Below, piece after piece: positions 2,546 through 55,900 of a stretch of DNA of 64,000 nucleotides. Both the position numbers and the translations under genes were made by a program. Within the stretch, counting starts at the first letter, position 1; every line of letters starts with the position of its first letter. This DNA comes from Zygnema cylindricum (taxonomy: Eukaryota > Streptophyta > Zygnematophyceae > Zygnematales > Zygnemataceae), in the NCBI GenBank assembly GCA_037447655.1, contig JBBHKE010000579.1:62001-126000 (forward strand), in the 5' to 3' direction. The notes beneath the pieces are model-generated. The model did not search any database. It saw only the letters and a list, made by a program, of their open reading frames with translations, and had not been told where the DNA came from.

Positions 2546-3181
2546 CTTGCAGCCAGTTTTGCATCACTGGCTCCATGTCGGGCGATCTTCTCCCCCACCG
2601 TCTAAGGAAAAAAAAAAAAAAACAAAAAAAATATAAAGAAACGAAAACAAAAAGAAAAAAGAAACAAAAGCAAAAATAAAAAAAGAAACGGAAAAAAAAA
2701 AAAAAAAAAATAACAAAATAAGAAAGAATGAACAAAAAAAAAAAAAAAGACAAGGGCAACTACACATAAAAAAATTAAAAAAAAAAAAAAACAAAAAAAA
2801 TAAAATAGAATAAAATAAATAAATAAATAAATAAATAAAAAACGTTTCCCTCCCACTCCCCCTTTGTCCCACCCTTCTCCCTTCGACCCCATATACCCCA
2901 CAGACACCTCCCTCTTTCCCCTGCCCTCCCTCTCTCCCCCCCCCCCCCCCCCCCCCCCTCCTCTTACTCTCTCCTCTCCCCTTCTTTTCTTTTTTCCTGC
3001 CTCCCCCTCCCCCTACCTCTCTCCGCTGCACGGTTCCTCCGAATCCGGTCGCTTGGCAGAACATGCGGTACAGCGGTACGGCGGCGTAGGTGGACCCCAC
3101 CATGGCCACCACCAGGGCCAGCAGATAGTACACCATGGCCCGGGAACTCTTGGCTCCGGCCTTCTGACTAGCTTCTAATAG
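2546..3181 (-). CDS. COX11: COX11 cytochrome c oxidase copper chaperone (two internal exons, partial)
   Basis: COX11 is an inner-mitochondrial-membrane copper chaperone that delivers copper to the CuB site of cytochrome c oxidase subunit 1. Two minus-strand exons are seen. Exon 3017-3181 (165 nt, phase 0 in and out) encodes the single membrane helix (VYYLLALVVAMVGSTYAAV) followed by the family signature AAVPLYRMFCQATGFGGT. It ends before a GTAGGG donor. Exon 2546-2601 (56 nt) follows a TTAG acceptor, starts TVGEKIARH and ends phase 2 before GTATAG. The join RRE/TVGEKIARH matches plant COX11 as I know the family. The Cys in RMFCQ is a conserved residue after the helix. The N-terminal presequence exons (to the right) and the copper-binding C-terminal domain (to the left) are not in view. 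The gene runs off the left edge, and I cannot tell whether it is functional. Confidence 0.85.
2602..3016. repeat. Low-complexity COX11 intron (A-rich block and poly-C tract)
   Basis: The intron between the two COX11 exons is almost entirely low complexity: A-rich runs at about 2608-2845, including tandem AAAT, then a C/T-rich block with an unbroken C run at about 2937-2958. The open frames through it are artefacts of composition. Confidence 0.85.
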
Positions 3182-24969: not shown

Positions 24970-25113
24970 ACTAAACCAGTTGATACGTTTCATACTAATC
25001 CGGTTGATACGTTTCGTACTAAACCGGCTAATACGTATCATACTAAACCGGCTAATACGTATCATACTAAACCGGTTGATACGTTTCGTACTAAACCGGT
25101 TGATACGTGTCAT
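24970..25113. repeat. 24-bp minisatellite at the tyrosinase 3' end (six units)
   Basis: Six units of the type ACTAAACCGGTTGATACGTT repeat every 24-25 bp. On the minus strand the tyrosinase reading frame runs into the first unit (25113-25091) and stops at the TAG that each unit contains, so the last residues DTYQPV are repeat-encoded. Confidence 0.9.
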
Positions 25114-27342
25114 ATACATAATCAGCTTCAAAAGGTGAGTTCAACTGCGTATCTACAGTTCTTAAAAGCTCCAAATTAGTGTGGGCATGATCCGAAGGCA
25201 AAGAACGGAAATTTTCCATAAAAGTAGCCCTAAGAGTAGGCTCATAGAGGCCATGGCCCTCACAAATTCCGGTTGGATTTCCATCTCCAGGAGGCAAAAC
25301 TCCGGGCCACATTTCATCCGGATATATGATGTTAGTTGAACTGAAATAGTCGGGATACACGCTGTTATTTGTGCTAGGGTAAGTGAAATTCATTTCCTCC
25401 CAGTTTCCTGCAGGATGAAGCAATCGCCAGGACGTGAAAAGTCGGTCGACATTCGTATGATGAGGCCAAAAAATCGGGTCGTTGACGGAAGCGGCAACAT
25501 CTGTGCACAGAAAAGACAAAAAAAACGTGCATAATCGAACGGTCAGGAATATGCACCCTGTGTGCACGAAGCACTAAAACAAGAAGATTTGTAGGACTCA
25601 ATGGCAACGGTATCATGGTGTTTGAAAGAGAATTCTATGAACCATACTTGTTATGTATATCATGTTTAGTGCGCACTTTATGCAACTGCGGTGTTCACAC
25701 CGGCGGGGCAAGTAAAGGAATGTTTGTTTGATGTTCATGTAATGTTTGGATAATGTTTAGATATTTGGTGAAAATCGGGAAATAATCGGGTAGCTTCGGC
25801 AACATTACATAAACATAAACAGGAAACCGCACATATTTTTTAACATAGAAATGTACCGTAGTGCAGAAGCATGGGAGGGAGTGCATGATCACCTGCGTAG
25901 TCGCCGACATATCCAGCCGTAGAACAGAGTCCGTAATCGGCGAAGTCCCAGCCAAGAGGAATATCGGTTCTGCCAAAAAATCGAACCATGGTGTAATAGG
26001 CGGAACACCGGATTGGAGCCTGCAAATTGCACGACCAGTCAATTTTGAGAAATGACAAATACGACAAAATCGAATTGTACTATGCAACAAAATGTAAAAT
26101 GCAACAAAATGTAAAATGCGACAAAATGTAAAATGCAACAAAATGTAAAATGTGACAATCATTAAAATGCGACAAAATGTAAAATGCGACAAAATGTAAA
26201 ATGCGACAAAATGTACAATGCGAAAAAATGCAGAATGCGAAAAAATGTAAAATGCGACAAAATGTGTAATGTGACAAAATGTATAATGCGACAAAATGTA
26301 TAATGCGACAAAACGTTAAATACGAAAAAATGACAAATGCGACAACGTCTAATGCGACAAAATGTATAATGCGACAAAATATATAATGCGACAAAACTTA
26401 AAATGCTGGACATGGCTCATGGGAAGGTACAAAATCTTACATCGGCTGTGCATTCACATGCACATGCAGAAGGGTCTTCGTCCAAACTGTCGCATTCTTT
26501 CGTGCATGTGATGCAGCCGTCTCTGACTCCTAAAGAACGAACTTCGAGGCCGTACGTGGCGTACTCTGAAAACGCCTCCGCGCACTCTAAAGTCGAATTG
26601 AACATCGTGCAATTAAGTTCGCTTGCGACGCTGCTATATGTCGTAAGTCCGGTCAATCCGCCAATGATGTTGTGCGCTGACACGTGTACTGTACATGCAC
26701 ACGAATAATTGAAAAATGGGTACTTCCGAATAGAAAAGAAGAGAAGAAAAAATGGCATTTTTGCTAAAATGGGTGTACCATTTGGGTACAAAGGAGAGAA
26801 GAAACGTAAGAAATTGTATGTAGAGAGTTAAAATTTACAATTGTATGGTTTTGACTTACCGAATTTTTCAATACAACTAATGACTTCACCCAAATAAACG
26901 TATTCGTGGCAAGATGCCCATAATGTTTGTGTGGGAAGTGCTCCACCAAGAACATTTCCCATTCGGGTTATATATGGGGCCCGGTTGTTCACTTCTGGAC
27001 TGGAAAACAACAAAAAAACATAAAAAAGAGGTAAGAAACACACACGAACATGGATATATGACATCCAAATACGTCATCGCATAGTCTTTCCATAGCCGAT
27101 CACTATTACAATTTTTTTTTCTATAATTTTTTTTTGTGAGTTTTGTCGCCTTCGTTACGGCACGTACGAGCGTAAATATCCGTACGGGTTGGTGACGCCA
27201 GCAGGTCCCAAAGTACCCCAAGTGAGTTGAGAAATAGCCTCCGCCTCTGTTTTGTACGGAACGGTCCAGTAGGCAAACTGGCCATCTTTAACTGCACCAC
27301 CCAGCCTTTCCATGTCATGGATCAGTTTTTGCATGTAGACAG
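25091..27342 (-). CDS. Tyrosinase / polyphenol oxidase family protein (five 3' exons, partial)
   Basis: Minus-strand exons 27186-27342, 26860-26999, 26441-26688, 25893-26019 and 25091-25500 join in one frame with consistent phases (2, 1, 0, 1). Tyrosinases are type-3 copper oxidases that hydroxylate or oxidise phenols. The CuB centre is visible: HVSAHNIIGG (first two His, exon 3) and DPIFWPHHTNVDRLF (third His, exon 5). The CuA signature should be upstream of 27342 and was not found, so the gene is partial or its 5' exons are far away. Between the CuB His pairs lie roughly 125 residues including a Cys-rich block (CITCTKECD, ACACECTAD), far more than the usual few tens. Exon 5 also contains GICEGHGLYEPTL and ends in a minisatellite. 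The acceptor of the first visible exon is weak. A specific substrate cannot be given. Confidence 0.8.
26075..26405. repeat. 17-bp minisatellite in a tyrosinase intron
   Basis: About nineteen units of the form ACAAAATGTAAAATGCG fill the intron between tyrosinase exons 3 and 4. The reverse strand of this array gives repetitive HFVAFYILSHFTFCRI open frames without meaning. Confidence 0.95.
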
Positions 27343-37785: not shown

Positions 37786-38832
37786 TGAAACTCTGAGACC
37801 TCCATAAGTCCTTAGAGTGGACAACTTCCAAAAAGCCTCTAGGATAACCCTGACCCCTTTGTGTTTCAGCAAAAACAAATGCCACCCTGGCATACAATAA
37901 CTCTGACCAACTTCACCCCTATGAAGGCAAGACTCCCGTGAGTCGATAGCAAAAAGAATCTCTGAATTTGCTCCCCTGAGCAGTAAGTTACGGAGGGTCA
38001 AAGTTGACCTTTTGTATACAAGCTCTCTAGGAGAGAGGGTCCTATCTCCTAATTTTTGTAAGTCCTATCTCTCTCACAGACTCTATCTACTGATGTACGG
38101 AGCCAATCAAATTATAGTTCCGTACACAAAAGTACAGCTGCCGGTGTACTTTCTGTACGGACACTGTACGACATGGCCTAAATATTGACACGTGGGATGT
38201 CCGGATTCGCTCCCTTAATCCTCGTAGATGCTGCGATCCAATGTCATTCTGCCACGTGTCATCCGATGTGGCGATGACCACAAACCGCCAAAATTCTCTT
38301 CCGCGATCTCGGCTTTAACCCGGCCGTCCGATCAAATTCACATTTAATCGTAGCTGTAATAAATACATGCGCGATATTCGTGTCATTAAAGAAATAAATG
38401 CGCGGTATTGGTTTTTTATTCGTACCGTAATCCGTACTTTTACATTACTGGATCTATGTATCTTGTTAACAGTTACAGTTAAATGAATTATCCTACCTGA
38501 TAATGTTTAATTAGTTATCAAACCATATAGTATGTATCACTATTTCTAGACCTAACGGCTAAGGCTATCGACTACCGGCTGTCTGCCGCCCGGTAGATAT
38601 CAGGATCAAATCTTGTGGCCGGCACATATCTTTTAGTAAATAAACCCCTAACTAATATATATTTTCCAGTAAACCTCTGGATAGCCTAGGTAGCCATGGC
38701 TATAGCTCCCTCTCCAATTTCTCAGTGACTGCGACAAGTTTGAGAGTTGGAGACAGAAGTAAGAGGTAGACTGCCTCGGCTTCTTTCTTATTTCTGACCT
38801 AGAAAATACTTTAAAAACCATTAATTTCTACA
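37786..38832 (-). repeat. 3' LTR of Copia A (1047 bp)
   Basis: Starts (plus strand) TGAAACTCTGAGACC and ends TAATTTCTACA, followed by the polypurine tract. It is homologous to 49525-50577 with a net 6-bp length difference and scattered substitutions, so the insertion is not recent. Confidence 0.95.
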
Positions 38833-39343
38833 CTCCCCTTATTTTCTAGTGAATCTTTAATTTCAGACCACACTTCTCACTGCAGAAAATTAGCTTAGGG
38901 GAAGGCACAGGTTTGGTCATCATATCTGCTACCATCTCACTATTTGGTCGGTACTCTAAACTGATTATTTTGTTTTCTACTTTCTCTCTAACAAAGTTGA
39001 GTCTGATGTCCATGTTTTTGGCTTTAAAATGATGTTTAGGATTGGCAGAAATAGCGATTGCTGCCTGATTATCACAAAAAATTTTTGCACACCACTCTTA
39101 AGGTGATCTAGCTCACTAAGCAAAGACTTGACCCACATCAATTGTTTTACAGCAGAGCAAGAGGCCATATACTCAGCCTCCATGGTGGACTGAGCAATAA
39201 CTTTTTGCTGTTTGCTACTCCAACAGCAAGCCCCATCACCCACATATAATACTTATCTAGAAGTGCATCTCCTCATCGGAGCATCACCACAACTGGCATC
39301 ACTCCAAGTAGTGATGTCAGTATTCTCCCCACCCAAATGCAAC
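38833..39343 (-). pseudogene. Copia A, RNase H C-terminal part (left of the inner element)
   Basis: Continuation of the outer pol after the inner insertion: motifs WSDAS, GDAPMRRCTS, CCWSSKQQKVIAQSTMEAEY and AVKQLMWVKSLLSEL are those of Copia RNase H. There is a stop after CTSR and a frameshift after VQKFF. Confidence 0.9.
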
Positions 39344-39348
39344 TATAG

Positions 39349-40321
39349 TGTAAAATATGTGACCTCCATTGGTACACATAATGTCTAGCTTAAGTGAAGC
39401 CTCTAGGATAGTATATGCACTTTTGACTTTGACAGTGAATAAGTCCCACCTTGGGACGCAAAATCTCTGGCCGACTACATCCATGTGTAGTCTGGACTCC
39501 CCTGAGTTCGCTGCAAAAAGAATCACTGAAATTGCTCACCTGAGCATTAAGTTATGGCTAACCAAAGTTGGTCCATAAATACAAGTGCACTCTTTGAGAG
39601 AGGCTGGAAAACCAAAAAATATTCTAAGTCCTAAGCTACCTCTCTAAGCCTACTACTAAGGTACTTCGACCAATCATAAGATTGTAAAGTACAAGAAGGT
39701 ACAAGTACTGCTGTACTTCTTGTACGACCATAGTACGGCATGGCCGTTGCGCTGACGCGTGTCAGTTCCGGAGCCGTAGTTGCTCCTCCCGTGATATCCG
39801 CTGCCGAACCATATGTTGCCACGTGTCATCCATCGACATCTGGTCCACAAACGGCCAAACGGCTTTTCCGGCATTCCGGCTCCACTATGAGCCGTTCGAT
39901 TAGATCTAGACATTTGATTTTGTCTATCGAAAATTAAATGTTAATTCGTATATTTCGTGCGGTCCCGATTTCGTGCGGACTGGTATGTTTCCATGCATAA
40001 ATCGTCCCGTAATTAGTTAAATGAAATGTCCGGCGCGATTTAGATTTAAATAAATATCGCGCCATATGCATGCATCGATTTCTTCAAGACTTACCGGATA
40101 AGGCGCGCGGCTGGTCCGTAGGGTGATCATCCAGAGGTCACTGGATCAAGTCCCACACGGGGCTGTTATATTTTGCAGAAAAAACTGTACTGAATGATCT
40201 GCCTGTCTCTTTTAGCTGCAGCAGGCAGCCATGGGTATTTGCAGGTCCTCAGGGACTACGACAAGTATGAGGGCTGCAGTAAGTCAACAAGAAATACTAC
40301 AAAATACCTCTCTTTTCAACA
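39349..40321 (-). repeat. 3' LTR of Copia B (973 bp)
   Basis: Plus-strand borders TGTAAAATATGTGACC and CTTTTCAACA. Aligns with 44714-45686 without net indels. It includes a weak tRNA-like stretch at about 40090-40165 (ACCGGATAAGGCGCG and CTGGATCAAGTCCCA). Confidence 0.95.
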
Positions 40322-40334
40322 CTCCCCTTATTTT

Positions 40335-43300
40335 CTAGTCTATCTTTTGCTTCAGTCCACACTTCTCCCTACAAAATATCAATTTAGAAGAAGGGACCGG
40401 TTTAGTCATCATATATGCTACCATCTCACCATCTGGTCCATATTCCAAACTAATGATTTTATTTTCAATTTTCTCCCTAACAAAGCTCAAACGAATATCC
40501 ATGTGTTTTGCTTTAAAATGATGTTTAGGGTTCGCTGCTATTGCTATCCCAGCTTGATTGTCACAAAATATCTTTTGTACTCCATTCTTCATGTATCCCA
40601 ATTCTTGAAGCAAAGATTTCACCCACATTAACTCTTTCACAGCTGAACAAGAGGCCATGTACTCAGCCTCCATGGTGGACTGAGCAATGACCTTTTGTTG
40701 CTTACTGCTCCAACAGCAAGCTCCATTCCCAACATGCAACACATACCTTGAAGTACACCTCCTCATCGGAGCATCCCCATAACTGGCATCACTCCAAGTT
40801 GTGATGTCAGTATTATCCCCTCCTAGATGCAACCACAAATCTCTAGTTCCTACCAAATACCGCATGACCCTTTTGGCCGCTTCTCAATCTTTTTTCCTAG
40901 GATCATTCAAACTCCTACTTAATACTCCCAGAGCTGCAGCTATAGCAGGACGAGTAGAGTTCATAAAATAGATCAAACTACTGACAAATTGTCTGTACGG
41001 AATAGTTTTCATGAACTTGCTTTCCTCAGGTCCTAGCTCATCATCCAAAATCAAGACTTCCTCTTCTGAGCTCCCCTCATTTCCTTTCTTTAAGTCCATT
41101 GGAGTTGTACAACTATTTGTTTTTTCCATTTGAATTTTTTCAAGCATATTCCCAATTGTTTCCTTTTGAGTTAGTCTAATTATATTCTTTTCTCTATCCC
41201 TCTCCATTTGAATTCCCAATATGTACTTTGCCTCCCCTAAATCTGTCATTTCAAATCTACTCTTTAGATCATTTTTCAATCTATTAATTTTCACCATTGA
41301 TTTACTTAACACAAGCTGATCATTAACATATATGGCAATGAAAATTATACCTTCCTCATCCTCAAATAAGTAGATCGAATGATCCGAACTGATCCGGATA
41401 TATCCCAAATTCGTCAAGAACTCGTCCAACTTTTTGTTCCATTGGCGAGGAGCTTGCTTTAGTCCATAAAGGGACTTTATCAATCTACACACTTTGCTTT
41501 CTTCACCTTTCTCCACAAATCCTTCCGGTTGTCTCATGAAAATCTCTTCTTCGAATTCTTTGTGTAAGAAAGCAGTTTTGATGTCCATCTGGTGCACTTC
41601 CATGTCTTCCGCTGTCGCGAGACTAAGTAAAATCCGGACGGAGGGGAATCTAACAACCGGAGCAAAGGTCTCCTCTTAACCGATTCCCTCTTTCTGTGTG
41701 AACCCCTTTGCCACTAATCTGGCCTTGTATCGCTCGATAGTGTTATCTAGATTAAGCTTCAACTTAAATACCCACTTGCATCCTATTCGCTTTCTATCCG
41801 GAGGACAATCCACCAACTCCCAAGTGTTTGCTTCCATAATGGAAGCAATCTCATCATTAATAGCTGTCACCCATCTACTACCTTCCAGACTATTAACTGC
41901 AACTGATTAAGTTTGAGGTTCACTCAAATGTGACAGCTTAGTTACCTTGTTGTTCACTTGTCTCTCTTGAAGTCTCTTGCTGCTTCTCCTTCCTCCTTCA
42001 AACTCCGATGCTGGAATGGAGGGTAATCTTGGGTTTCTCCGAACAACTTCGCCTTCTCCCCTATTTGTGGAGTCCATCTCCGGACGTTCATCGTCCATTT
42101 CCAGTCTTTGTTCGTTTTTTTCCTCGGTTTGAACCGGATGTTGTGACTCCAAGAGAGGATCACTCTTGGTCAATTTTTCTTCTCTCTCTGCAAAGTCAAG
42201 CTGAACCGGAGTTCGGTTAGTAGAATCTGAATCTAACTCACTTTCGGATTCAATTCTAATTCTGACCGGTTTAGTGTACTTAGAGGGATTTATGGATTTT
42301 CCTTCATCCATAACTACCAAGTGTTTCACTAGAATTATGTCTTCTCTTCCGAGATCATAAACTCTATACCCTTTTATGTTCTCATCATACCTAAGTAAGT
42401 ATCATGGCTTTGTTCTAGCATCTAACTTCCAATCAGATTTTTCTCTGTTTAAACTAAACACTTGACTTTCAAACACCTTTAAGTGTGATATGTTAGGTTT
42501 TCTCCCGGTCCATCTTTCATAGGGTGTTTGACCTTTTACAGCTGAGGTAAGGACTCTATATTTGAGATAGTTAGCACAATTCATGGCTTCTACCCAAAAG
42601 CTTTTCCTTATCATTTTATCTGTCAACATGCTACGGTCACTATCACTTAATGTCCGATTTAGTCCCTCGGCTACACCATTTTATTTTGGGTTTTTTTGGA
42701 CAGTCTTTTGGTATTGAACCCCTTCCTCTTTCAAGTAATCCTCAAATTCATTAGAAGTGAATCCCCCCCCATTATCACTTCTCACTCTCTTTATAGGTGT
42801 CTCATGAAGCGTTTCACTCTATGATTTACATTCTTTAAAGTAAGGCGAAGCATCAGATTTGTTTTTCAAGAAATATACTCTAGAGTATGTAGACCAATCA
42901 TCAGTGATAGTAAGCATAAATCTTTTCCCTCCAACTGATGGCACTTTAGCCGGTCCCCATATGTCAGTGTGAACCAAATCTAAAACCTTTTCACCCTTAT
43001 ATGTTGCGGCTTTTGGAAAAGGCAATCTGCGGGCCTTTCCTTGAGCACACCCACTACAATCATCCAAAGTCTCATTATCTCCAAAATGTATGCCCTCAAC
43101 TTCACCTTTTTTCTTCATTTCCTTTAATCTATCTAGATGCACATGTCCCAATCTTTTATGCCACATCATCAAATCACCTACACCAGCATAGTAAACTCCC
43201 GTCTTTCCATTACTCAAATTCAACCTAAACATTCCTTGGCTACCCTTTTAAGCTGTGAAGTACACTTCATTCTTATAGCTAGCAACGAAGACTCCTTTCG

Positions 43301-44709
43301 TAGTACTAGTCTCAAAGCCTTTATCATCTAAGACCGACGTAGAGATAAGATTTTTGTTCAGCTCTGAAATAAAAAGAACATCAGAGAAAGTGACTATAGA
43401 TGTCTTTCCATCAACTAGGACCCTCAAATCTACTGTTCCCACTGAATTAGTGGTCACTATCCTCCCATCCCCATACTCTATCTCTACAGTAGGGATCTTT
43501 CTCATTTTGGTAAACAATGGTTTTTCTCTACACATATGCATAGAGGCTCCTCAATCAATGATCCATCCTTCTTCAGGAGCTTCTTTCACTCCACCGAAAG
43601 CACACTTTTGCCTCCTTGGAATCTCTGGCTCACCTTTCACCTCCAACTCCTCGTCGAGGAGAAGTTCTCCATCGTCATCATCGCTATCCTCTCCCACGAC
43701 TTGTGTTGCAACAAATGCCTTTTTTTTTCCTTCCGGATGGTTTTCCAATCGATTCCTCTTTTAATCTCAACTTCGTCAACTTAGTGCACTCCGCCATGTA
43801 GTGTCCCGGCTTCTTATTAAAATGGCAAAGCCCCTTTGGAGCCCTTGGTCCTGATATGTCATAGTTTCCTCTTCCTCCTCCTCCAAAGTTCCCATAAGGT
43901 TTCTTGGAATCCTTATCCCCCCAATTAGTACCTGCAGCCAATGCCTGAACATTCTTCCCCCCTCTCTGAATCTCAATTGTGCTTTCCCGAACCAAAATCA
44001 TTCCCACAACAGAGTTCCAGATCCATCGATGATCTAGCAAGTCCTGAACCCTGTTAACAATGTTTTCATAATCATCTGGGAGTTTCATCAACAAAGTATT
44101 CACCTTCTCTTTCTCGGTCTCCCTTTTCCCTGCACTCTCCAACTCCATAAATAACCGAGCCAAGTCATGACAAAAGTCTAACATCTTTCCCTCTTTGTAT
44201 ACATATGCTTGTACCTTGTGATCTGCCAGCTTCTGCTGGTGAATCGTACCACTCTTGTAAATGTTGACAAAAGCCTCCCACAACTCGTTTGCCTTGTCAA
44301 CATGAAGATGAGGTGTAGCCACTGCCTGAGTGAGATGCCCGAGAATAAAATGAGTCGCCATAGTATTGTTGAAATCCCAGATTTCACTATCATTAGCCTC
44401 GGTTTTCAGAACATCTACTATCGGAACCGATCGAGTAGGCATCGGTGTGAGTTTCTCCTTCCCCTTCTCCTTCCCTATGTTCGACACGATGCTTTCTCCA
44501 ACATCCTCTACCACCTCTGCCCCCGCAAATCCTCCTGTGAAACGAGATCCTCCAAACCCTGGTGGAACTCCCAATTTTGCAGATGGCCGACGCACACGAC
44601 CACTCACAATGCCCCAAAGCCTTTTTTCAAACAATGCACCCCTCATCATAGTTTCCCAATAAATAAACCCTGTTCCATTGAAAATGGGCACCTTAGAGGG
44701 TGGGCCCAT
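40335..44709 (-). pseudogene. Copia B gag-pol polyprotein, degenerate
   Basis: Gag starts at the ATG at 44709 (MGPPSKVPIFNG), has a UBN2-type capsid region and a zinc knuckle whose second Cys is Asn (CHFNKKPGHYMAEC). The protease motif that should read DSGAS is broken by a stop (about 43554). Integrase shows HKRLGH, CSGCAQGK, DLVHTDIWGP and RSDNGG, with several stops. Reverse transcriptase shows MDIKTAFLH and LYGLKQAPRQWN, and its YVDD box reads YVND. RNase H is intact to the stop at 40335 (STMEAEYMA, NPKHHFKAKHMDIR). At least five stops or frameshifts interrupt the frame, so no functional polyprotein is possible. Confidence 0.92.
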
Positions 44710-44713
44710 AACC
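44699..44713 (-). other. Primer-binding site of Copia B (initiator tRNA-Met anticodon arm), containing the gag ATG
   Basis: The plus strand reads GGTGGGCCCATAACC, the sense sequence of the anticodon stem-loop of plant initiator tRNA-Met (loop CCCATAA, anticodon CAT). The element RNA is therefore complementary to an internal tRNA segment, as known for Drosophila copia and yeast Ty5. The gag start codon is the ATG inside it (44709-44707), with an in-frame TAA three codons upstream. Confidence 0.85.
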
Positions 44714-45686
44714 CGTTAATTGTGTGACCTCCATTGGTACACAGAATATCCAGCTTATGTGAAGCCTCTAGGATAAAATATACACTTTTGAATTTGAAAG
44801 TGAATAAGTCCCACCGTGAGACGCAAAAACTCTAGCCGATTACACCCCTGTATAGCCTGGACTCCCCTGAGTCCCCTGCAAAAAGAATCACTGAAATTGC
44901 TCACCTGAGCATTAAGTTATGGCTAACCAAAGTTGGTCCATAAATACAAGTGCACTCTGGGAGAGAGGCTGGAAAACCAAAAAATATTCTAAGTCCTAAG
45001 CTACCTCTCTAAGCCTACTACTAAGGTACTTCGACCAATCATAAGACTGTAAAGTACAAGAAGGTACAGGTACCGTTGTACTTCTTGTACGGCCATAGTA
45101 TGGCATGGCCGTTCCGATGACGCGTGTCAGTTCTGTAGCCGTAGTTGCCCCTCCCGTGATATCCGTTGCCCAACCATATGTTGCCACGTGTCATCCACCG
45201 ACATCGGGTCCGCAAACCGCCAAACGGCTATTCTGGCATTCTGGCTCCATTGTGAGGCGTTCGATTAGATCTAGACATTTGATTTCGTCTGTCGAAAATT
45301 AAATGTTAATTCGTATATTTCGTGCGGTCCTGATTTCGTGCGGACCGGTATGTTTCCATGCATAAATCGTCCCGTAATTAGTTAAATGAAATGTCCGGCG
45401 CGGTATAGCTTTAAATAAATATCACGCCATATGCATGTTTCGATTTCTTCAAGACTTACCGGATAAGGCGTGCGGCTGGTCCGCTCGGTGATCATCTAGA
45501 GGTCACAGGATCAAGTCCCACAAAGGGCAGTTATATTTTGGAGAAAAAACTGTACTGAATGATCTCCTTGTCTCCTTTAGCTGCAGCAGGCAGCCATGGC
45601 TGTTTGCAGGTCGTGAGTGACTACGACAAGTATGAGGGCTGTAGTTAGTCCACAAGAAAGACTACAAAATACTTCTCTTTTCAACA
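44714..45686 (-). repeat. 5' LTR of Copia B (973 bp)
   Basis: Paired with 39349-40321. The first base pair at the gag side is C rather than the T of TG, a mutated terminus. It is directly followed on the minus strand by the primer-binding site and the gag start. Confidence 0.95.
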
Positions 45687-45691
45687 CATAG

Positions 45692-48600
45692 ATCCCTGGT
45701 TCCTATCAAATATCTAAGTACTCTCTTAGGTGCCTCCAAATCCCTCTTAGTGGGAGCATTTAGATTTCTACTCAGCACTCCTACAGCTGCAGCTAAATCC
45801 GACCGGGTACAATTCATAAAATAGATTAGACTTCCCACTACTTGCCTTTAAGGAATAGTCTACATGAACTTTTGTTCTTCAGGAGATATTTCCTCGTCTA
45901 AGACTATGACTCCTTCTTCTTCACTCCCCTTTCTTCCCTTCTTCAACTCCATTGGAGTTGTACAACTATTAGCTTTATCTATTTGAAATTTTTCAAGCAT
46001 GTTCCCTATTGCTTCTTTTTGAGTCAATCTTATAATTTTTCATATTCGGTCTCTCTCTACTTGAATTCCCAAAATATATTTTGCTTCCCCCATATCCTTC
46101 ATTTCAAATCTCCCCTTAAGATCGGGTTTCAGTTTATTAATATTTTCCATTGATTTACTTAAAACAAGCAAATCATCAACATAAATTGCAATAAATATAA
46201 AACCTTCCTCATCTTTGAAAACATAGATTGAGTGATCTGAGCTGATCCGGATACATCCTAGACTGGTAAGAAACTCATCATGCTTCTTATTTCACTGTCG
46301 AGGCGCTTGTTTCAAACTATAAAGAGATTTAATCAGCCGGCATACCTTACTCTCCTCTCCTTCCTCCACAAACCATTCGGGTTGTCGCATGAAGATCTCC
46401 TCTTCCAATTCTCCATGCAAAAAGGTTGTTTTGATGTACATCTGGTGCACTTTCATGTCTTTCGCTCTTGCCAGACCGAGAAGTATTCGGACGGAGGGAA
46501 ATCTGACCACTGAGGCAAAGGTTTCTTCTTAGTCAATTCCCTCCTTTTATGTAAATCCCTTTGCCACTAGTCGGGCCTTGTAGCGCTCGATTGTGTTATC
46601 TGGGTTCAGTGTTAATTTGAAAACCCACTTACAACCGATTCGTTTTCGGTTAGGTGGACAATCCACCAGCTCCCAAGTATCAGTTGCCATAATTGAGGCC
46701 ATCTCCTCATTGATGGCTGTCTTCCACCGATTACTTTCTGGACAAGTCATCGCCTCTCCATAAGTTTGAGGTTCATCTTGATGAGATAGTTTAGTTACCT
46801 TGTTATTAACCTGTTTTTCTTGCACTCTTTTGCTACTTCTCCTTTCCCCCTCAAAATTTGAGGCCGGAATAGATGGTTTTTGTGGATTCTTTCGAACAAA
46901 CTCGGCTTCTCCCCTATCCCTTGATTCCGAATCAATTTCCACCACGTCTTCCGCTTTGGGTAGAGTTGTCATTGAAGTTTCCACAGCCGAGTCCTTTTCG
47001 GTCTGATTTGTTCCTGCAAGAATGTCATCTTCTCTAAAACCTGGATAGTTAGGAAGCTCAAAGTCATCAGAATTTTGTGACTCAAATCCGATTTTTACTG
47101 ACTTTGTATATTTGAAGGGGTCCACAGAATTTCCTTCATCCATAACTACTAAATGCTTTACTAAGATTATATCTTCCATTTTAGATCATTAACTCTATAT
47201 CCTTTAACATCCTCATCATATCCTAATAAGTATCTTGGTTTTCCTTTGGGATCTAGCTTCCAATTAGACCGATCTGTATCTAGACTGAATACTTGACTGC
47301 CGAAAACCTTTAAGTGAGATATGTCTGGTTTCCGGCCTGTCCATCTCTCATAAGGTGTTTGATCTTTTATAGCTGAAGTAAGAACTCTATTTTTGAGGTA
47401 ATTAGCATAGTTCATTGCTTATGCCCAAAACCTTTTTCCTATCTTCTTATCTGACAACATACTTCTACCACTATCACTTAGTGTTCTATTTAACCTTTCG
47501 GCTACCCCATTCTGTTCCAGGTTTTCTGGAACTCTCTTTTGGTGTTGGACCCCATCTTCCCTTAGAAAATCCTCAAATTGGTTAGAAGTATACTCTCCAC
47601 CATTGTCACTCCGTATTCTCTTGATTGGAGTTTCATGGAGTTTTTCGCTCCATGCTTTATATTGTCTAAAACAATCCTGAGCTTTTGACTTGTTTTTCAA
47701 AAAATACACCCGGGAATATCGAGACCAATCTTCAATGATAGTCATCATAAATCTCTTTCCCCCCGGTGAGGGCACTTTAGCCGGTCCCCAAATATCTTTG
47801 TGTACTAGATCTACAATTTTTTCTCCCTTATAGGTGGCTGTTTTAGGAAAGGGTAATCTGTGTGTTTTACCTTGAGCACATCCACTACAATCACTTAAAT
47901 TATCACTCTCACTGAACTGAATCCCTTCCACCACTCGCATATTTTTCATCTCTCTTAACTTATCTAGATTGACATGCCCAAGCCTCTTATGCCACATCAT
48001 AATATCATGAACACCAGCATAATAAAGTTTCTTCTTTTCATTACTTAAAACCAGCCTAAACATCCCATGGCTACCTTTCTCAGCAATGAAATAGACACCC
48101 TCCTCAAAACTAGCAGTAAAGACTCCTTCCCTAGTGCTAGTAAAAAAACCCTTATCATCTAATACGGATGTAGAGATGAGGTTTTTGTTCAGCTCCGGAA
48201 TAAACAATGCATCGGAGAATGTTACTATGGATGTCTTTCCTTCTACTAACACTCTCAAATCTACTGATCCTACAAGAGTAGTGGTGACTATCCTCCCATC
48301 CCCGTACTCTATCTCTACGGCGGGAATATTTTTTATCTTAGTGAACAGGTGCCTATCGTTACACATGTGCATAGAGGTACCTAAATCTACAATCCAGCCT
48401 GCTTCACCTTTCAATCCACCGTAAGCACATTTCTGCCTTCGTGGAATTTCGAACTCGTTTTTCGCCTCCAACTCCTCATCCAAAAGGAGCTCATCGTCCT
48501 CGTCCTTGGATTCCGCCTCATGTACCTGTGTCACAATGGCCTTTTTCTTTCCTCTCGGGGTACCACTGGTCTGCCCCTCCTTTATCCGAAGTTTGGTTAG

Positions 48601-49520
48601 CTTAGTGCACTCTGCCATATAGTGCCCCAGTTTCTTACAAAAATGACATAAACCTTTGGGAGCCCTTGATCCGAACTCGTCGGTCTGATTTTTTTGCTCC
48701 CTCCCCTCATAGTTTCGACAGGTTTTCGGGAATCCTTGTTCCTCCAATCGGTCGCAGTTGCCAAGGCTGGGCCACTATTTCCTCCCCTTTCGATCTCAAT
48801 CGTATTCTCCCGAACGAGAATCATCCCTACCATTGAGTTCCATATCCACATTGAGTCCGGCAAGTCCAACACACGGTTGACTATGTTTTCGAACTCATCG
48901 GGTAACTTCATCAGTAAATAGTTAACCTTTTCTTTTTCACTAAAATATTTTCCCGCACTCTCTAGCTCCATGAAGAGTGTAGCAAGCTCATTGCAAAAAT
49001 CCAACATCTTCCCCCCTTTGTATACAGACTCGTTAACTTTCTGATCAGCTAACTGTTGTTGCTGAATCGTACCACTTCGGTACATCTCTATGAGAGCCAT
49101 GTAAAGATCGGATGCCCTTTCTACTTGCAAATGAGGACATGCAATTCCTTGAGTTAGATGGCGTAGGATGAAGTGCTTTGCCGCCATATTGTTCAAGTCC
49201 TTGGTTTAAGTATCATTCTCCTCGTTCCTCGGAAAAGGTGACATGAATGCCGAACCGGTTGCTATTGGTGTGGTCGCCTCCTTCTCCTTTCCTTTGTCCA
49301 CCACCTCTCCTTCTTTTGTTTCCTCCGTTTAAGGTGGATCCTCTTTCCTGGTGAATCTGCTTTCTCCAAACCCTAGAGGAATTCCAAGACTTGATGGATG
49401 CCCCAACTGTCTACTCACTATCCCCCAAAACCTTTTTTCGCATAGAGCTCCTATCATCATACTTTCCTAGTATTTGAAGCCAGTTCCATTAAAGATTGGT
49501 ACCCTAGAGGGTGGGCCCAT
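45692..49520 (-). pseudogene. Copia A gag-pol polyprotein, right part, degenerate
   Basis: Gag starts at 49520 in the primer-binding site (MGPPSRVPIF). It continues through a capsid region (MAAKHFILRHLTQGIACPH), an intact CCHC knuckle (CHFCKKLGHYMAEC), and a protease motif altered to DLGTS (Ser replaced by Leu). Integrase (HKRLGHVNLDKL, CSGCAQGK, RSDNGGEYTS, NGVAERLNRTL) is largely open from 48747 to 47419. Reverse transcriptase (MYIKTTFLHGELEEE, YVDD preserved at about 46170) continues to GTRDL, where the inner element interrupts. Stops occur in the gag N-terminal region, near 47405, 46510 and 46300. Confidence 0.92.
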
Positions 49521-49524
49521 AACC
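49510..49524 (-). other. Primer-binding site of Copia A with the gag ATG
   Basis: Plus strand GGTGGGCCCATAACC, identical to that of Copia B. The ATG at 49520-49518 opens gag, and TAG lies in frame two codons upstream. Confidence 0.85.
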
Positions 49525-50577
49525 TAATACTCTGAGACCTCCATAAGTCCTCAAAGTGGACAGCTTCCAAGAAGCCTCTAGGATAACCCTGACCCCTTTG
49601 TGTTTCAGCAAAAAAAACCGCCACCCTGGCAGACAATAACTCTAACCAACTTTACCCCTGTGAAGGGAAGACTCCCCTGGGTGGATAGCAAAAAGAATCT
49701 CTGAATTTGTTCCCCTGAGTAGTAAGTTATGGAGGGTCAAAGTTGACCTTTTGTACAGAAGCTGTTTGGGAGAGAGGGTCCTATCTCCTAATTTTTCTAA
49801 GTCCTATCTCTCTCACAAACTCTATCTATTGATATACGAAGCCAATCAAATACTGTTTCGTACACAAAAGTACAGCTGCCAATGTACTTTCTATATGCAC
49901 ACTGTACGACATGGCCTAAATGTCGACACGTGGTATGTCCAGATTCGATCCTTTAATCCTTGGAGATGTCGCGATCCAATGTCATTCCGCCACGTGTTAT
50001 CTGATGTGGAGATGACCACAAACCGCCGAAATCCTCTTCCGCGATCTTGGCGTTAATCTGGCCGTCTGATTAATTTCACATTTAATCGTAGCCGTAATAA
50101 ATACATGCGCGATATTCGTTTCATTAAAGAAATAAATGCGCTATATTGGTTTTTGTTCCGTACCGTAATCTGTACTTTTACATTAGTGGATCTATGTATC
50201 CTGTAAATATTTATAGTTAAATGAATTATCCTACCTGATAATGTTTAATTAATTATCAAACCATATAGTACGTAACACTAGTTCAAGACCTAACGGCTAA
50301 GGCTATCGACTACTGGCTGTCTGCCGGCCGGTAGGTACTTCGATCAAATCCTGTGGCCGGCACATACCTTTTAGTAAATAAACCCGTAACTAATATATAT
50401 TTCCCGTAAACCTCTGGATAGCCTAGGTAGCCATGGCTATAGCTCCCTCTCCAATTTCTCAGTGATTGCGACAAGTTTGAGAGTTGGAGAGAGAAGTTAG
50501 AGGTAGACTACCTTGGCTTCTTTCTATATTTCTATTTAGACCTAGAAAATACTTAAAATGGACCATTAATTTCTACA
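49525..50577 (-). repeat. 5' LTR of Copia A (1053 bp)
   Basis: Paired with 37786-38832. The gag-side terminus reads TAAT on the plus strand where the partner has TGAA. The outer terminus is CTACA followed by the duplication GAAAT. Confidence 0.95.
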
Positions 50578-50582
50578 GAAAT

Positions 50583-51693
50583 CAACGCACGGCAAACAGT
50601 ACGCACATGCTGAACGTGCAATATGTTTTTTTTTGGTACTTCGCGCACAAAAATTGTAAAAAACTTCCGACACGTGCGACAACATCTACCTATTTGCTCA
50701 ACTTATAGGACTATATTTAAAATCACCTCGCAAGATGATTTGATGTAAAGGTTGAACATGAGGTGGAAGGACGCGAAAATGGGTCGAAATGCGCTAAACG
50801 ACAAATTGCATCGCGCTAGACACAAATTACTGTACGTATAGAGTTTCAAGGTAACGCAACTTGTACGGTGGTAATTTCAATTTTCTGGTACGGCTTCAGA
50901 TTTTTTCATTTTTTTCTAAGTTATGAAGGAAAACGATAGAAAATAACTGTAACTTTCCCACATGCGAAAGTACCCTTAGTCGTCTTCAATCGTCAAAAGT
51001 TGTAGCCACGTCTACAATTGTAACATTTAAAGTTCCCTCTAAAAAGTAATACGGAGGATCTTCGCAAAAATCTAAAGTTATATTTCAAAGTTTAGGTTAC
51101 ATGGGCACACACCCTCATAAGGCACTAGGGAAGCGTAGATGCGGTTTTTTTTTTAAAACAAAGCGAAACGAAACGACACTACACGTGCGAAGTAATACGA
51201 CACTTAAAAACAACTAACCGAAAAAAAATAACAATTGACCGGCGTACGAAAAGAAATACGCGCTTTGTCATAACAAACGCCAAACCACATTCAAATTAAA
51301 CACACAAAAGTACACATTGTACCCGAACTAAAAACGCACTGAAACAAAAACATAGACGTACGATAACATAAAAAGACGTGACAAATATGAAACGCGACGT
51401 ACGGATTTGTACCAATGTTATTTTATGACAATCAAGGTCATTCTTGTGTAACTATTTCACACGTGTATTGTAGTTGGTTACAGTCCTCTTCGAGTAAAAC
51501 CTCAAGTAAAATAGTTGCTAGAAAGCCGAATAGACCAATTGCTTTACGGATGAGGACCCAAAAAAAAAATCGAACGGTTGGTGTTTACGCCGTAACATTC
51601 GTAGAACCCATCTAGATTATGAAGGAAAGATGCTTTTCAATAAAAAAGAAAGGGAATTGCTAATTGCAAAGACAATTTTTGCTGCGCGCAAGG
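50583..51693. other. No gene recognised right of the Copia nest
   Basis: Unique-looking A/T-rich sequence. About 50625-50980 is a diverged direct copy of about 37080-37380. Open frames are short and without domains. Confidence 0.5.
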
Positions 51694-52952: not shown

Positions 52953-55900
52953 ATGGTAAGGCTGTGGGACACGTGGAGACTTTCCGTACTTATGGTGGTT
53001 TTGCTGACGTTGAGCGTTGTTCCTGAAGGAGCAGGTGAGTTAAATCTTACCGTACATTGACCTCACATTGAGGTAAAAGAAGCTACAGAATATGTAGAGG
53101 GTTCTGTTTGAAGTCTTGCTGCGTGTGAGTTGGTAGTAAGTTAAAGCAAGTTTTTTCGGAAAGAGCTTATAGCAATAAAAGTTGTGAGAAAATGGTTTCT
53201 TTGTAAGTAACAAAAATAGACTGTATTCCCTTTTAGACGTGTTTTTATTTGTTATGAGGCTGTTATGCCTAAACTGTTAAGTTTCCTGAATCAAGGGATA
53301 GTATGGACGATCCTAATAAAGAGAATGATAAGCCGGCCAAGATTTGAACCCCAAGTACCACCAGCTCATATGTTATGCTGGTGTGTCCAATTTTATATAA
53401 GTTTTAGTGTGGATTTTACCACAATTCCGGGTATCGATCGGCACATTCTACGTACGTCAACACCCCCTTTCGAGAGGTAGCTGGTCACAATTGTCCATGT
53501 AAACCTGGTCCCCTTGGCTCCGATACCATGTTAAGATTCGTAGAATCGGGGGATAGAATGGACGATTCCAATAAAGGGATTGATGAGCCGGCCAGGATTT
53601 CAACCTGGGCTGCAAACGCACTACCACTTCCACTGTGCCATCAGCTCAGATGTTATGTTGGTGGGTCCAATTTTATATAGGTTATAATGTGGATTTTACT
53701 ACAATTCCGGGTTTTGATAGGCACATTCTACGTACGTCAACATAAACAACTTGATTTCCACATTTGTTTGTTCTTTTGATAGAATCGAACAAAAAACAAA
53801 ACCTTGTGAAATATCTGGATCTCATAATATAATGCTTAGGGAAGTATGTAATGTCTTCAATAACGATGTATGTTGTTCATTTTCGAAATGACGTGTGCCA
53901 TGAGTTTTTTTTTGTATCTTCTGTTTGATTTTATATTCCTCAGTTATCACATTATGGAAAACCGCATTATGGAAAATAAGAAATGATTTGCATGGGCCCT
54001 CAAAGGCAACTGTTTTAAAACTAAAGCATTCAAATATTCGGAGAATCGTATATAGTTTCAATTTCTACACGAGGTGTTATCTACAAAGCTTAAAATACAT
54101 GTTTAATGCTTTTGAAGTAACAGTTAAAACACAACAACTAAACGAGATACATGAATTTGATTAATAAAAAATCGTGTTTAAAACAATTCAGTAACTTAAA
54201 GCCAAACTTATTGTCGGTTGCATTGTTTAAATGTGCGAAAACAATTCGAAATGCTATATGTGGTTACCCTAAACTATACATGTACTAAACCTTATAAAAT
54301 CCATATATTATATGGTAAACACAAATAGCGTTTCCAATTATATTCACGTCACATATTGCCTATTTTATGGTTTAGGATTGGTTACACACCGAAGTGTGTG
54401 CAACATACACAATACTCACAAGCGAAAACTTACAAAAACATCACACCGCAGAAAAGTTCAACACTCGGCCAAATTCGCAGGTGTTAAACCGAAGCATTTT
54501 TCTCCTACTGTCACTCAAGAATTAGAATACAACTCACGGAAAACTGACGCGAGACTATACTAACCTGCTTTAGTCCTAAGTGTTAAGATTCGCAAAATAG
54601 AGGGCTAAAGTGGACGATCCCGTTGAAGGGAATGATGAACAGGTTCATCCAAGATTTCAACCTAGGACCTTTCAAGATCCCGTTGTAGGGAATGATGAGC
54701 CGGCCAAGATGTCAACGTAAGGCCTTTCACTGGAGCTGGAGCTGTGAATGCCCTAACCACTTTGCCACCAGCCCGGATGTCGTGGTCGGTGAGTCTTTTT
54801 TATTAGGTATTTTAGTGTGGATCTGGGTATCAATCGATACATTCTTCTTACGTTAACACCCCCCCTAGGGAGGTAGACGGTCAATTAAGTCCACGTGTAA
54901 CCTGATCCTTTTGGCTCCGGTACCATGTTACGATTCGTAGAATCGAGGGATAGAGTTGACGATCTCGTTAACGGGAAAGATGAGCTGACCAAGATTTGAA
55001 CCTAAGACCTTTCATTGTACCTGTGAATTCACTAACCAATGTGCCACCAACCCCAATATTGTGGCTGTTGAGTGCTTTTTATTCACGTGTGGATCCGGGT
55101 ATCGATTGGTACATTATTCGTATGTCAACAATAACACACAAAATGACAATATCATTTGAAAGCATACTAATACAATAACAATGTTCCACCAACCATAACA
55201 TACATTAACGAAACAAATGAATAGGTTCATTCTACTGTTTGAATACGAAACCAAACACGATGAGAAATTAATAATAACATATAAATCTGAACTAAATCAC
55301 TTACCCAAAAAGAATAACAAAATGACTTACGATAAAAAACCTGGTGAATTCATAAGTGAATAACGGATTTATAGCTTCATTCAAAATCAGGTTTGCTCAA
55401 CCGGAGACGCTTTTTCTTACAATCATTCACACTGCTACCCAAAAATTGTATGACTATCTTAAAACTACGGATAAATTGTGATGGTGCCAAAATTTGTTCG
55501 GCTGTATAAAACTACGAGCCACAATGATAGTGAACTGTGTGCATAAGGGAACATTTACCTGAAAAAATCACGAAAGAAGCCATGAAAAATTAGTTTGTAT
55601 TTTTTTGAGGTATAATTACATCAAAAAAAATGATGTGTGGTTCAGCAGGGTCTAGAATTTAGACAAAGTGAAGAATGGATCCTATCTATTTTTGACTCTA
55701 AGTTATTTTCGTTTGTGTAGGTGCAACGACATGTGTGGGAAAACTTTCCACCTTTACGCTGTACAAGAGAAAAAAATCACTAGGATCAAACATGTCTACG
55801 TTTAACTCCACCTTGGGTCTTTCAAACACTGTGATAAATTGTACGGCAACATGTGCGGCGAACTGCAGCTGTGTGGCTTTTGCTTTTGAAACCCTTAATA

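What the first reader, a model, noticed from the sequence alone, without database searches (positions are those of the whole stretch)
53275..55130. TRIM retroelements whose LTRs carry a complete tRNA-like cloverleaf
Two miniature LTR elements (468 and 550 bp, with 66-67-bp interiors holding only a primer site and polypurine tract) have, in their LTRs and in sense orientation, a module that folds like a tRNA. In one LTR it is exactly 72 nt with canonical segment lengths and a fully paired acceptor stem. In another the acceptor and anticodon stems are perfect, with a 6-nt loop duplication. In a third the anticodon arm is missing but D and T stems are perfect. Box A and box B are recognisable. 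The closest precedent I know is Cassandra, a TRIM with 5S rRNA sequence in its LTR. A tRNA-type counterpart could be transcribed by Pol III and would give the element its own transcript and perhaps end processing by RNase P/Z.
Basis: partly seen in the sequence, partly recalled or inferred. Interest (0 to 1): 0.9.

Follow-up and report, generated by a model that had tools for sequence, protein, structure and literature searches.

The report
Tiny retrotransposons with tRNA-shaped repeats
Two very small, decayed jumping genes carry a tRNA-shaped stretch in their end repeats; they belong to a kind described in 2024 (Helenus), with hundreds of related copies in this plant-like genome, many of which keep the tRNA shape intact.

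Summary
Both elements (53275-53742, 54581-55130, minus strand) are TRIMs: TG...CA LTRs, 66-67-nt interiors, initiator-Met-type primer site, purine tract; the first has a 5-bp target duplication. All four LTRs hold a tRNA-like module in sense orientation. The window copies are old (LTRs 12% and 19% diverged; best Rfam tRNA score 27.4 bits, just under cut-off). Relatives in the same genome include recent ones (2 of 10 measured have identical LTRs), with modules scoring 39-59 bits in three LTR families. The cloverleaf is kept, with some compensatory changes, while the anticodon drifts. Between one A and one C LTR the module is 94% identical, the rest 41-55%; other comparisons do not single the module out. 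A pattern search found 559 exact A/C module starts (reversed control 1); 18 of 18 sampled ones lacking an exact LTR prefix still adjoin LTR sequence, so it is no separate SINE. Cassandra is not the closest precedent: Kojima 2024 defined TRIMs with tRNA-like LTRs as Helenus. Pol III transcription is plausible but unshown; TTTT just behind the module in families B and C argues against full-length Pol III RNA there. New member of a known kind.

The parts
53275..53742 (-). TRIM element 1 (LTR-interior-LTR, 468 bp)
   Evidence: LTRs TGTTGACG...CTTAACA
53529..53742 (-). element 1, 5' LTR (214 nt)
   Evidence: 11.7% different from its 3' LTR over 188 aligned positions
53582..53647 (-). tRNA-like module of the 5' LTR; anticodon arm lost; box A TGGCACAGTGG without mismatch, box B one mismatch
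53671..53679 (-). TATATAAAA box upstream of the module
   Evidence: conserved in family A 32 nt upstream of module position 1
53463..53528 (-). element 1 interior (66 nt): primer site TGGTATCGGAGCC (53516-53528) and polypurine tract AAAGGGGG (53463-53470)
   Evidence: assignment to initiator tRNA-Met is from general knowledge
53275..53462 (-). element 1, 3' LTR (188 nt)
53327..53367 (-). remnant tRNA-like module of the 3' LTR (acceptor stem and T arm only)
   Evidence: 19.9 bits, E 0.0045
53743..53747 (.). target site duplication TAAAC, one copy
53270..53274 (.). target site duplication TAAAC, other copy
54581..55130 (-). TRIM element 2 (550 bp), older, no target duplication seen
   Evidence: LTRs 19.0% different over 205 aligned positions
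54926..55130 (-). element 2, 5' LTR (205 nt)
54979..55053 (-). complete tRNA-like module of element 2's 5' LTR, the best in the window
   Evidence: Rfam tRNA 27.4 bits at 54981-55053; family model, which includes this sequence, 69.7 bits
54859..54925 (-). element 2 interior (67 nt): primer site TGGTACCGGAGCC (54913-54925), G-rich polypurine tract
54581..54858 (-). element 2, 3' LTR (278 nt), with an internal duplication of the T-arm side
54694..54774 (-). tRNA-like module with a 6-nt anticodon-loop expansion
   Evidence: 54.9 bits

Best explanation
These are two decayed copies of a non-autonomous TRIM family of the Helenus type: miniature LTR retrotransposons whose LTR contains a tRNA-derived module. 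Shown by sequence: LTRs, iMet-type primer site, polypurine tract, 5-bp target duplications, recent copies, solo LTRs and tandem arrays, and a module with consensus boxes A and B whose four stems are kept while the anticodon drifts. Inferred: the element's RNA starts just upstream of or at the module, driven by the module's internal Pol III promoter and possibly (family A) by the TATA box 32 nt upstream; that RNA is reverse-transcribed and integrated in trans by an autonomous, probably Copia-type, element using initiator tRNA-Met as primer.
For: LTR, interior, primer site and polypurine tract. Exactly 5-bp target duplications in 14 of the 22 family A units with an LTR at both ends (29 units listed), in 5 of 23 family B units listed, and in 2 of the 3 family C loci that show both ends among 5 examined by eye. 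Identical LTR pairs in 2 of 10 family A elements measured. Module: 76 Rfam tRNA matches of 39.5-58.6 bits over 50 fetched loci, overlapping loci included. Stems: on 29 hand-chosen modules of three families 97.1% of cells pair (shuffled mean 85.7%), 10 of 21 pairs show two-sided changes (shuffled mean 7.6, reached by 13 of 500), and 0 of 500 shuffles reach the covariation score; without family B, 3 of 21 pairs (shuffled mean 0.8, reached by 6 of 500). 221 places carry box B, then LTR end plus primer site at the right spacing, against 1 for the reversed pattern. Module 94% identical between one A and one C LTR against 41% (U3) and 55% (3' part). TTTT in 3 of 44 family A LTRs against 15.8 expected. 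Published definition of Helenus.
Against: No transcript data. The B and C LTRs examined carry TTTT 3 nt (C, C') to about 12 nt (B) 3' of the module, which could stop Pol III inside the 5' LTR. Within family B alone (17 distinct modules) there is no covariation. Within family A only 2 pairs change on both sides, about what shuffles give (mean 1.5, reached by 204 of 500). In the A+C set the two anticodon-stem covariations each rest on one distinct module type (C'). The A/B differences could predate capture if the families took up different tRNAs. Within family A the module (95.0% mean column identity) is not better conserved than the 3' part of the LTR (97.8%), nor between C and C' (88% against 89%) or A and window element 2 (78% against 80%); so the A/C contrast may reflect exchange of the module, not constraint. 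The window copies are damaged. No autonomous partner was found; the window's Copia elements were only inspected.
Confidence: 0.88

Rival explanations
1. The module is a tRNA-derived SINE that happened to insert into these LTR copies and is not part of the element.
For: tRNA-headed SINEs are common in plants (general knowledge); Kojima 2024 proposes SINE insertion as the distant origin of such LTRs.
Against: All 44 full family A LTRs collected carry at least part of it at the same place, though the searches used LTR queries that contain the module. 379 of 559 exact module starts have the exact LTR prefix, and of 18 sampled others 15 have both LTR sides, 2 only the 3' side, 1 only the 5' side.
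Confidence: 0.05
2. Pol II makes the genomic RNA (TATA box), and the module is kept for its RNA structure or for making separate short Pol III tRNA-like RNAs ended by the TTTT behind it. (Overlaps with the best explanation, which leaves the polymerase open.)
For: TATATAAAA 32 nt upstream of the module in family A (33 of the 33 LTRs in which both motifs are exact; 44 examined, 3 without the exact TATA); TTTT behind the module in the C, C' and B LTRs examined and in most C sequences listed; stems, not only boxes, are kept.
Against: By eye no such TATA box in the B and C LTRs printed; TTTT is a partial stop in many Pol III systems (general knowledge); family A mostly lacks TTTT.
Confidence: 0.35
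3. The tRNA resemblance is chance or decay-driven and nothing is conserved.
For: No module in the window passes the Rfam cut-off.
Against: reversed-pattern controls of 0-1 against 174-559 matches.
Confidence: 0.01
4. The module supplies functional tRNAs to the cell.
For: ARAGORN calls family B modules Asp, Ala, Val or Gly and some family A modules Lys-CTT or CTA (printed part L039-L079 only). Family B mostly keeps T at position 33. Kojima 2024 predicts tRNA from 7 bivalve and 15 fungal Helenus families.
Against: Anticodon position 36 varies over T, A, G and C in A/C (13, 12, 11 and 9 of 54 distinct contexts); the base before the anticodon in A/C is G, where tRNAs have U (general knowledge); no ARAGORN-called tRNA among 29 compared is more than 68% (A) or 75% (B) identical.
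Confidence: 0.03

Closest known systems
Helenus (Kojima 2024, PMC10886601, TRIMp3 group)
   Same: TRIM up to about 1.3 kb without genes; [quoted passage not shown] primer site and polypurine tract; 5-bp target duplications in plants and fungi; several families in one genome; tandem arrays (zebrafish family); predicted isotypes that often disagree, including CTA suppressor types
   Different: The only plant family characterised there is from Selaginella (LTR 120 bp, interior 85 bp); here LTRs are about 190-280 bp and interiors 57-67. Here the complete cloverleaf is retained in many copies, with some compensatory changes; the paper holds that predicted structures do not support a tRNA function, except for a few bivalve and fungal families predicted to encode tRNA. 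Module sharing between otherwise dissimilar LTRs and chimeric or mixed arrays are not described in the five of six parts I read.
Cassandra
   Same: TRIM with a Pol III-type small-RNA sequence in the LTR; tandem arrays
   Different: Cassandra carries 5S rRNA sequence; no 5S match was found here
tRNA-derived SINEs (SINE2)
   Same: tRNA-derived region with boxes A and B
   Different: Here LTRs, primer site, polypurine tract and 5-bp target duplications; no LINE-like tail was looked for
Ordinary plant TRIMs and SMARTs (Gao et al. 2016, PMC4717578, passages seen)
   Same: Size class and tandem L-I-L-I-L arrays
   Different: The word tRNA does not occur in that paper's main text

Membership tests
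Helenus | TRIM: two LTRs, short interior, no protein genes | tested here: met
   no ORF of 120 aa or more overlaps either element
Helenus | tRNA-like sequence inside the LTRs | tested here: met
Helenus | primer site and polypurine tract at interior ends | tested here: met
Helenus | 5-bp target duplications (plants, fungi) | tested here: met
   14 of 22 family A units with an LTR at both ends, window element 1 among them; window element 2 (its 5' LTR is one of the 22) and 7 others show none
Helenus | conserved boxes A (TRGCY...YGG) and B (GGTTC) | tested here: met
   genome copies; window copies carry 0-3 mismatches to a recalled consensus
Helenus | Pol III transcription | not testable with these tools
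   no RNA data; unproven in the founding paper too
Helenus | sequence relationship to published Helenus families | not tested
Cassandra | 5S rRNA sequence in the LTR | tested here: not met
   no 5S match at gathering threshold in the window or in 50 loci
SINE2 | stand-alone tRNA-headed element outside LTRs | tested here: not met
   18 of 18 sampled A/C modules without an exact LTR prefix adjoin LTR sequence

The most novel reading that the evidence does not exclude
The cloverleaf is under selection as an RNA structure, not just as a DNA promoter, and acts as a shared cassette: the element RNA begins with a tRNA-shaped 5' end lying in the R region, so strand transfer between RNAs of different families can swap U3 sequences while keeping the module, which would explain why families A and C share a 94% identical module between dissimilar flanks and why a B/A chimeric LTR is joined inside the module.
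Probability: 0.25. Interest if true: 0.62.

Novelty: new member of a known kind. Interest (0 to 1): 0.42.

Why it matters
It adds a rich case to a barely characterised class (Helenus; one founding paper found): at least three families, young copies and hundreds of modules in one plant-like genome. The whole tRNA fold, not only the promoter boxes, persists in many copies while the anticodon drifts, which makes the question of promoter versus RNA structure directly testable. Practically, tRNA gene counts in such genomes may be inflated by these LTRs.

Tried and rejected
Considered and rejected: Cassandra (no 5S match), separate SINE insertion, working tRNA genes, chance resemblance. A parent tRNA was sought among 29 ARAGORN-called tRNAs (30 short regions fetched of the 63 matches listed); none is close (best 68% for A, 75% for B). 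The scarcity of TTTT in family A first looked like general support for Pol III, but the B and C LTRs examined contain TTTT, so it is not used for them. Chimeric LTRs: the composites at C327 and C1450 share 1,747 nt at 98.7%, including 5' flank, so I count them as one event; L109 (different sequence upstream of a family C module) looks like a local duplication of the L100 region; L119 (different upstream sequence joined at the module start) is unexplained and unused. A count of one-sided changes in family A (31 pair-keeping, 22 breaking; 27% keeping expected) leans towards structure but is not independent, 10 of the 31 being one shared change. Host identification failed: the only named relative of one window protein is from Closterium sp. 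NIES-53 (51% over 37%), the Copia protein gave only distant, mostly plant, named relatives, a third protein one unnamed hit. The primer sites of the window's Copia elements were looked at and left unresolved. In one search the second half (family B) did not run because the structure string was one character short; one search was used instead.

Full report
What is in the window. Two miniature LTR elements lie on the minus strand. Element 1 (53275-53742) has LTRs of 214 and 188 nt around a 66-nt interior; element 2 (54581-55130) has LTRs of 205 and 278 nt around 67 nt. In minus orientation each interior starts with TGGTA(T/C)CGGAGCC, which I read from general knowledge as complementary to the 3' end of initiator tRNA-Met, and ends in a G-rich purine tract; LTRs start TGTT and end AACA. 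Element 1 is flanked by a 5-bp duplication (TAAAC on the plus strand). Element 2 shows none. The LTR pairs differ at 11.7% of 188 and 19.0% of 205 aligned positions, so both are old. No ORF of 120 aa or more overlaps either.

The tRNA-like modules. All four LTRs contain one, in the sense of the element. Rfam's tRNA model gives 27.4 bits at 54981-55053, E 0.0052 for the 2-kb stretch, just below the gathering score of 29; at the gathering score the window has no RNA match and ARAGORN, with bacterial settings, none. A model built from 39 modules of the genome, the window's 54979-55053 among them, finds all four modules and a partial fifth piece. Box A and box B of the window copies carry 0-3 mismatches to a recalled consensus.

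The family in the genome. The window lies in a 353-Mb genome of 2689 contigs. Scanning the loci from two searches gave 44 full-length family A LTRs at distinct places, element 1's two and element 2's 5' LTR included, as solo LTRs, L-i-L elements, one L-i-L-i-L-i-L array and partial units. Of 29 units, 22 have an LTR at both ends and 14 of these have exactly 5-bp duplications. Of ten family A elements measured, two have identical LTRs and the rest differ by 0.5-8.1%, so some are recent. These counts are lower bounds: the tool scores only the best candidates.

Two further families. Loci L018 and L024 showed a second LTR (family B, 247 nt) with a different tRNA-like module and a 61-nt interior with the same primer-site start. 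Its search listed 55 matches, 51 of them near full length and 86-100% identical, the query included. Outside the module A and B LTRs show only short chance-level matches. A pattern search for box B followed at 45-75 nt by the LTR end and primer site gave 221 matches (131 + 90), against 1 for the reversed pattern, and revealed family C (LTR about 229 nt, interior 57 nt) with subfamily C'. C has yet another U3 but nearly A's module. With one representative LTR each, A versus C identity is 44 of 107 positions (41%) in U3, 67 of 71 (94%) in the module and 31 of 56 (55%) in the 3' part. The contrast is not general: for C versus C' the module has 88% and the 3' part 89%, for A versus window element 2 78% and 80%, and within family A the module's mean column identity (95.0%) lies below that of the 3' part (97.8%) and above that of U3 upstream of the TATA box (91.6%). 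Exchange of the module between families would explain this pattern as well as constraint.

Fold. The first alignment held 39 of 44 family A LTR modules; five with lengths outside 70-78 nt were left out, two of them the window's element 1, and element 2's 3' LTR was not among the 44. 96.8% of cells pair, and the D-stem pair C11-G24 becomes U-A in 9 of 33 distinct rows. RNAalifold predicts the same cloverleaf bar one pair. The covariation score exceeds all 500 shuffles, but the number of pairs changed on both sides (2) is reached by 204 of 500. On 29 hand-chosen modules of A, B and C (25 distinct), 97.1% of cells pair and 10 of 21 pairs have two-sided changes; no shuffle of 500 reaches the covariation score, 13 reach the number of pairs, 129 the number of pair types, and the slid controls pair 25-41% of cells. 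Much of that comes from A versus B. Without B (23 rows, 19 distinct), 3 of 21 pairs have two-sided changes (6 of 500 shuffles reach that) and 97.7% of cells pair; two of the three rest on C' alone (anticodon stem CTGAC/GTCAG against TTCGC/GTGAA), a single lineage. Within B (17 distinct) there is no two-sided change, 94.1% of cells pair, and the first anticodon-stem pair is missing in 16 of 17. The stems are therefore kept and co-vary between families, but independent events are few, and different captured tRNAs could account for the A/B part. The tool warns that related sequences inflate the shuffle comparison.

Decoding is not kept. In 54 distinct A/C sequence contexts that match a strict module pattern, the anticodon loop is AGCTNAA with N = T 13, A 12, G 11, C 9; the other nine are variants. 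The base at position 33 is G, where tRNAs have U (general knowledge). In 29 distinct B contexts the loop is ATGTCTA in 24, ACGGCTA in 4 and ATGCCTA in 1, so B mostly keeps T33. ARAGORN labels B modules Asp, Ala, Val or Gly, and some A modules Lys or CTA (the printed part covers L039-L079 only). No module type is more than 68% (A) or 75% (B) identical to any of 29 ARAGORN-called tRNAs of this genome; that set is a sample, so the parent may be missing.

Not a separate SINE. 559 places carry the exact 18-nt A/C module start (reversed control 1); 379 places carry it with the exact upstream LTR stretch (reversed control 0). I fetched 18 of the listed places without that stretch: 15 have both LTR sides, two only the 3' side, one only the 5' side. 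Family B was not tested this way.

Mixed and chimeric copies. A and B LTRs occur in one array: LB-iA-LA at C2522, LB-iA-LA-iB-LB at C2124 (first LB matched over 240 of 247 nt), and a composite starting with a B/A chimeric LTR at C1450 and C327. The chimera changes from B to A inside the module, in the one 14-nt stretch the two share (AAGGTCCCRGGTTC). C1450 and C327 share flank and composite at 98.7% over 1,747 nt, so they are one event. As cut, none of these composites has a target duplication. The join fits strand transfer within R but also plain homologous recombination.

Promoter evidence. Boxes A and B match the recalled consensus in intact copies of all three families. Family A has TATATAAAA 32 nt upstream of the module in all 33 LTRs where both motifs are exact (of 44; 8 more have the TATA box only, 3 lack it). 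TTTT occurs in 3 of 44 family A LTRs against 15.8 expected from shuffles, while AAAA occurs in 44 (40.1 expected). Against a general Pol III reading, the C and C' LTRs examined have TTTT from the third nt after the acceptor stem and the B LTR about 12 nt behind the module; most C sequences listed have it too, a few read TTTA. Pol III transcription of the full element is therefore plausible for A, doubtful for B and C, and unshown for all.

Comparison with what is known. I read five of six parts of Kojima 2024 (PMC10886601). It defines Helenus as TRIMs with tRNA-like sequences in their LTRs, reports them from fungi, animals and one plant (Selaginella), 5-bp duplications in fungi and plants, conserved boxes A and B, tandem arrays of a zebrafish family, and inflated tRNA predictions including CTA suppressor types. 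The present elements meet every defining feature I could test. The paper says the tRNA-like part does not prime reverse transcription and is unlikely to give functional tRNA, although 7 bivalve and 15 fungal families are predicted to encode one; the drifting anticodon here agrees with the main statement. A search for Helenus with TRIM, retrotransposon and tRNA from 2024 on lists only that paper. Broader searches (20 of 106 papers listed; 11 of 11; 4 of 4) showed no other report of tRNA-bearing TRIM LTRs in the titles and abstract starts I saw. Gao et al. 2016 (PMC4717578, passages) describe tandem TRIMs as common in plants; Kalendar et al. 2020 (PMC7215508, passages) describe Cassandra arrays and multi-unit transcripts.

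Host. Not identified. A window protein's only named relative is from the streptophyte alga Closterium sp. NIES-53, 51% over 37%, and the named relatives of the Copia protein are mostly from plants. Assemblies of six strains of that Closterium complex in PMC10407611 (passages) are 438-975 Mb, larger than this genome. I say plant-like and no more.

Verdict. New here, within the limits above: three families in one genome, a kept cloverleaf with a free anticodon, a module shared almost unchanged between two otherwise dissimilar LTR families, and mixed or chimeric LTRs.

Noticed in passing
L105 (G000 C438), within 1-300 of its reverse complement: In a family B-like LTR an insertion with long inverted ends (ACACCGCCAA...GGCGGTGT) interrupts the tRNA-like module; it looks like a MITE.
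   Followed up: no
window 38000-50600: Ty1/copia elements on the minus strand with long repeats (973 bp, 91.7% identical at 39350-40322 and 44715-45687) and reading frames in several pieces.
   Followed up: partly
window 25091-25567 and 26417-26791: Exons of a tyrosinase/polyphenol-oxidase-like gene on the minus strand (Pfam Tyrosinase on the first; the second by eye only).
   Followed up: no
window 2564-3136: Start of a Cox11/CtaG-like protein (sub-threshold Pfam match) running into low-complexity sequence.
   Followed up: no
G000 genome: The tRNA-family search of the whole genome had 24,620 loose first-look candidates, only 63 of which were scored; LTR-borne modules may account for part of this.
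   Followed up: no
L119 (G000 C301): A family C module and 3' LTR part joined exactly at the module start to a different upstream sequence that includes TGTTGACATAC.
   Followed up: no
L051 and L053 (G000 C672 and C2590): Family B interior plus LTR preceded by a shared sequence that is not a known LTR of these families.
   Followed up: no
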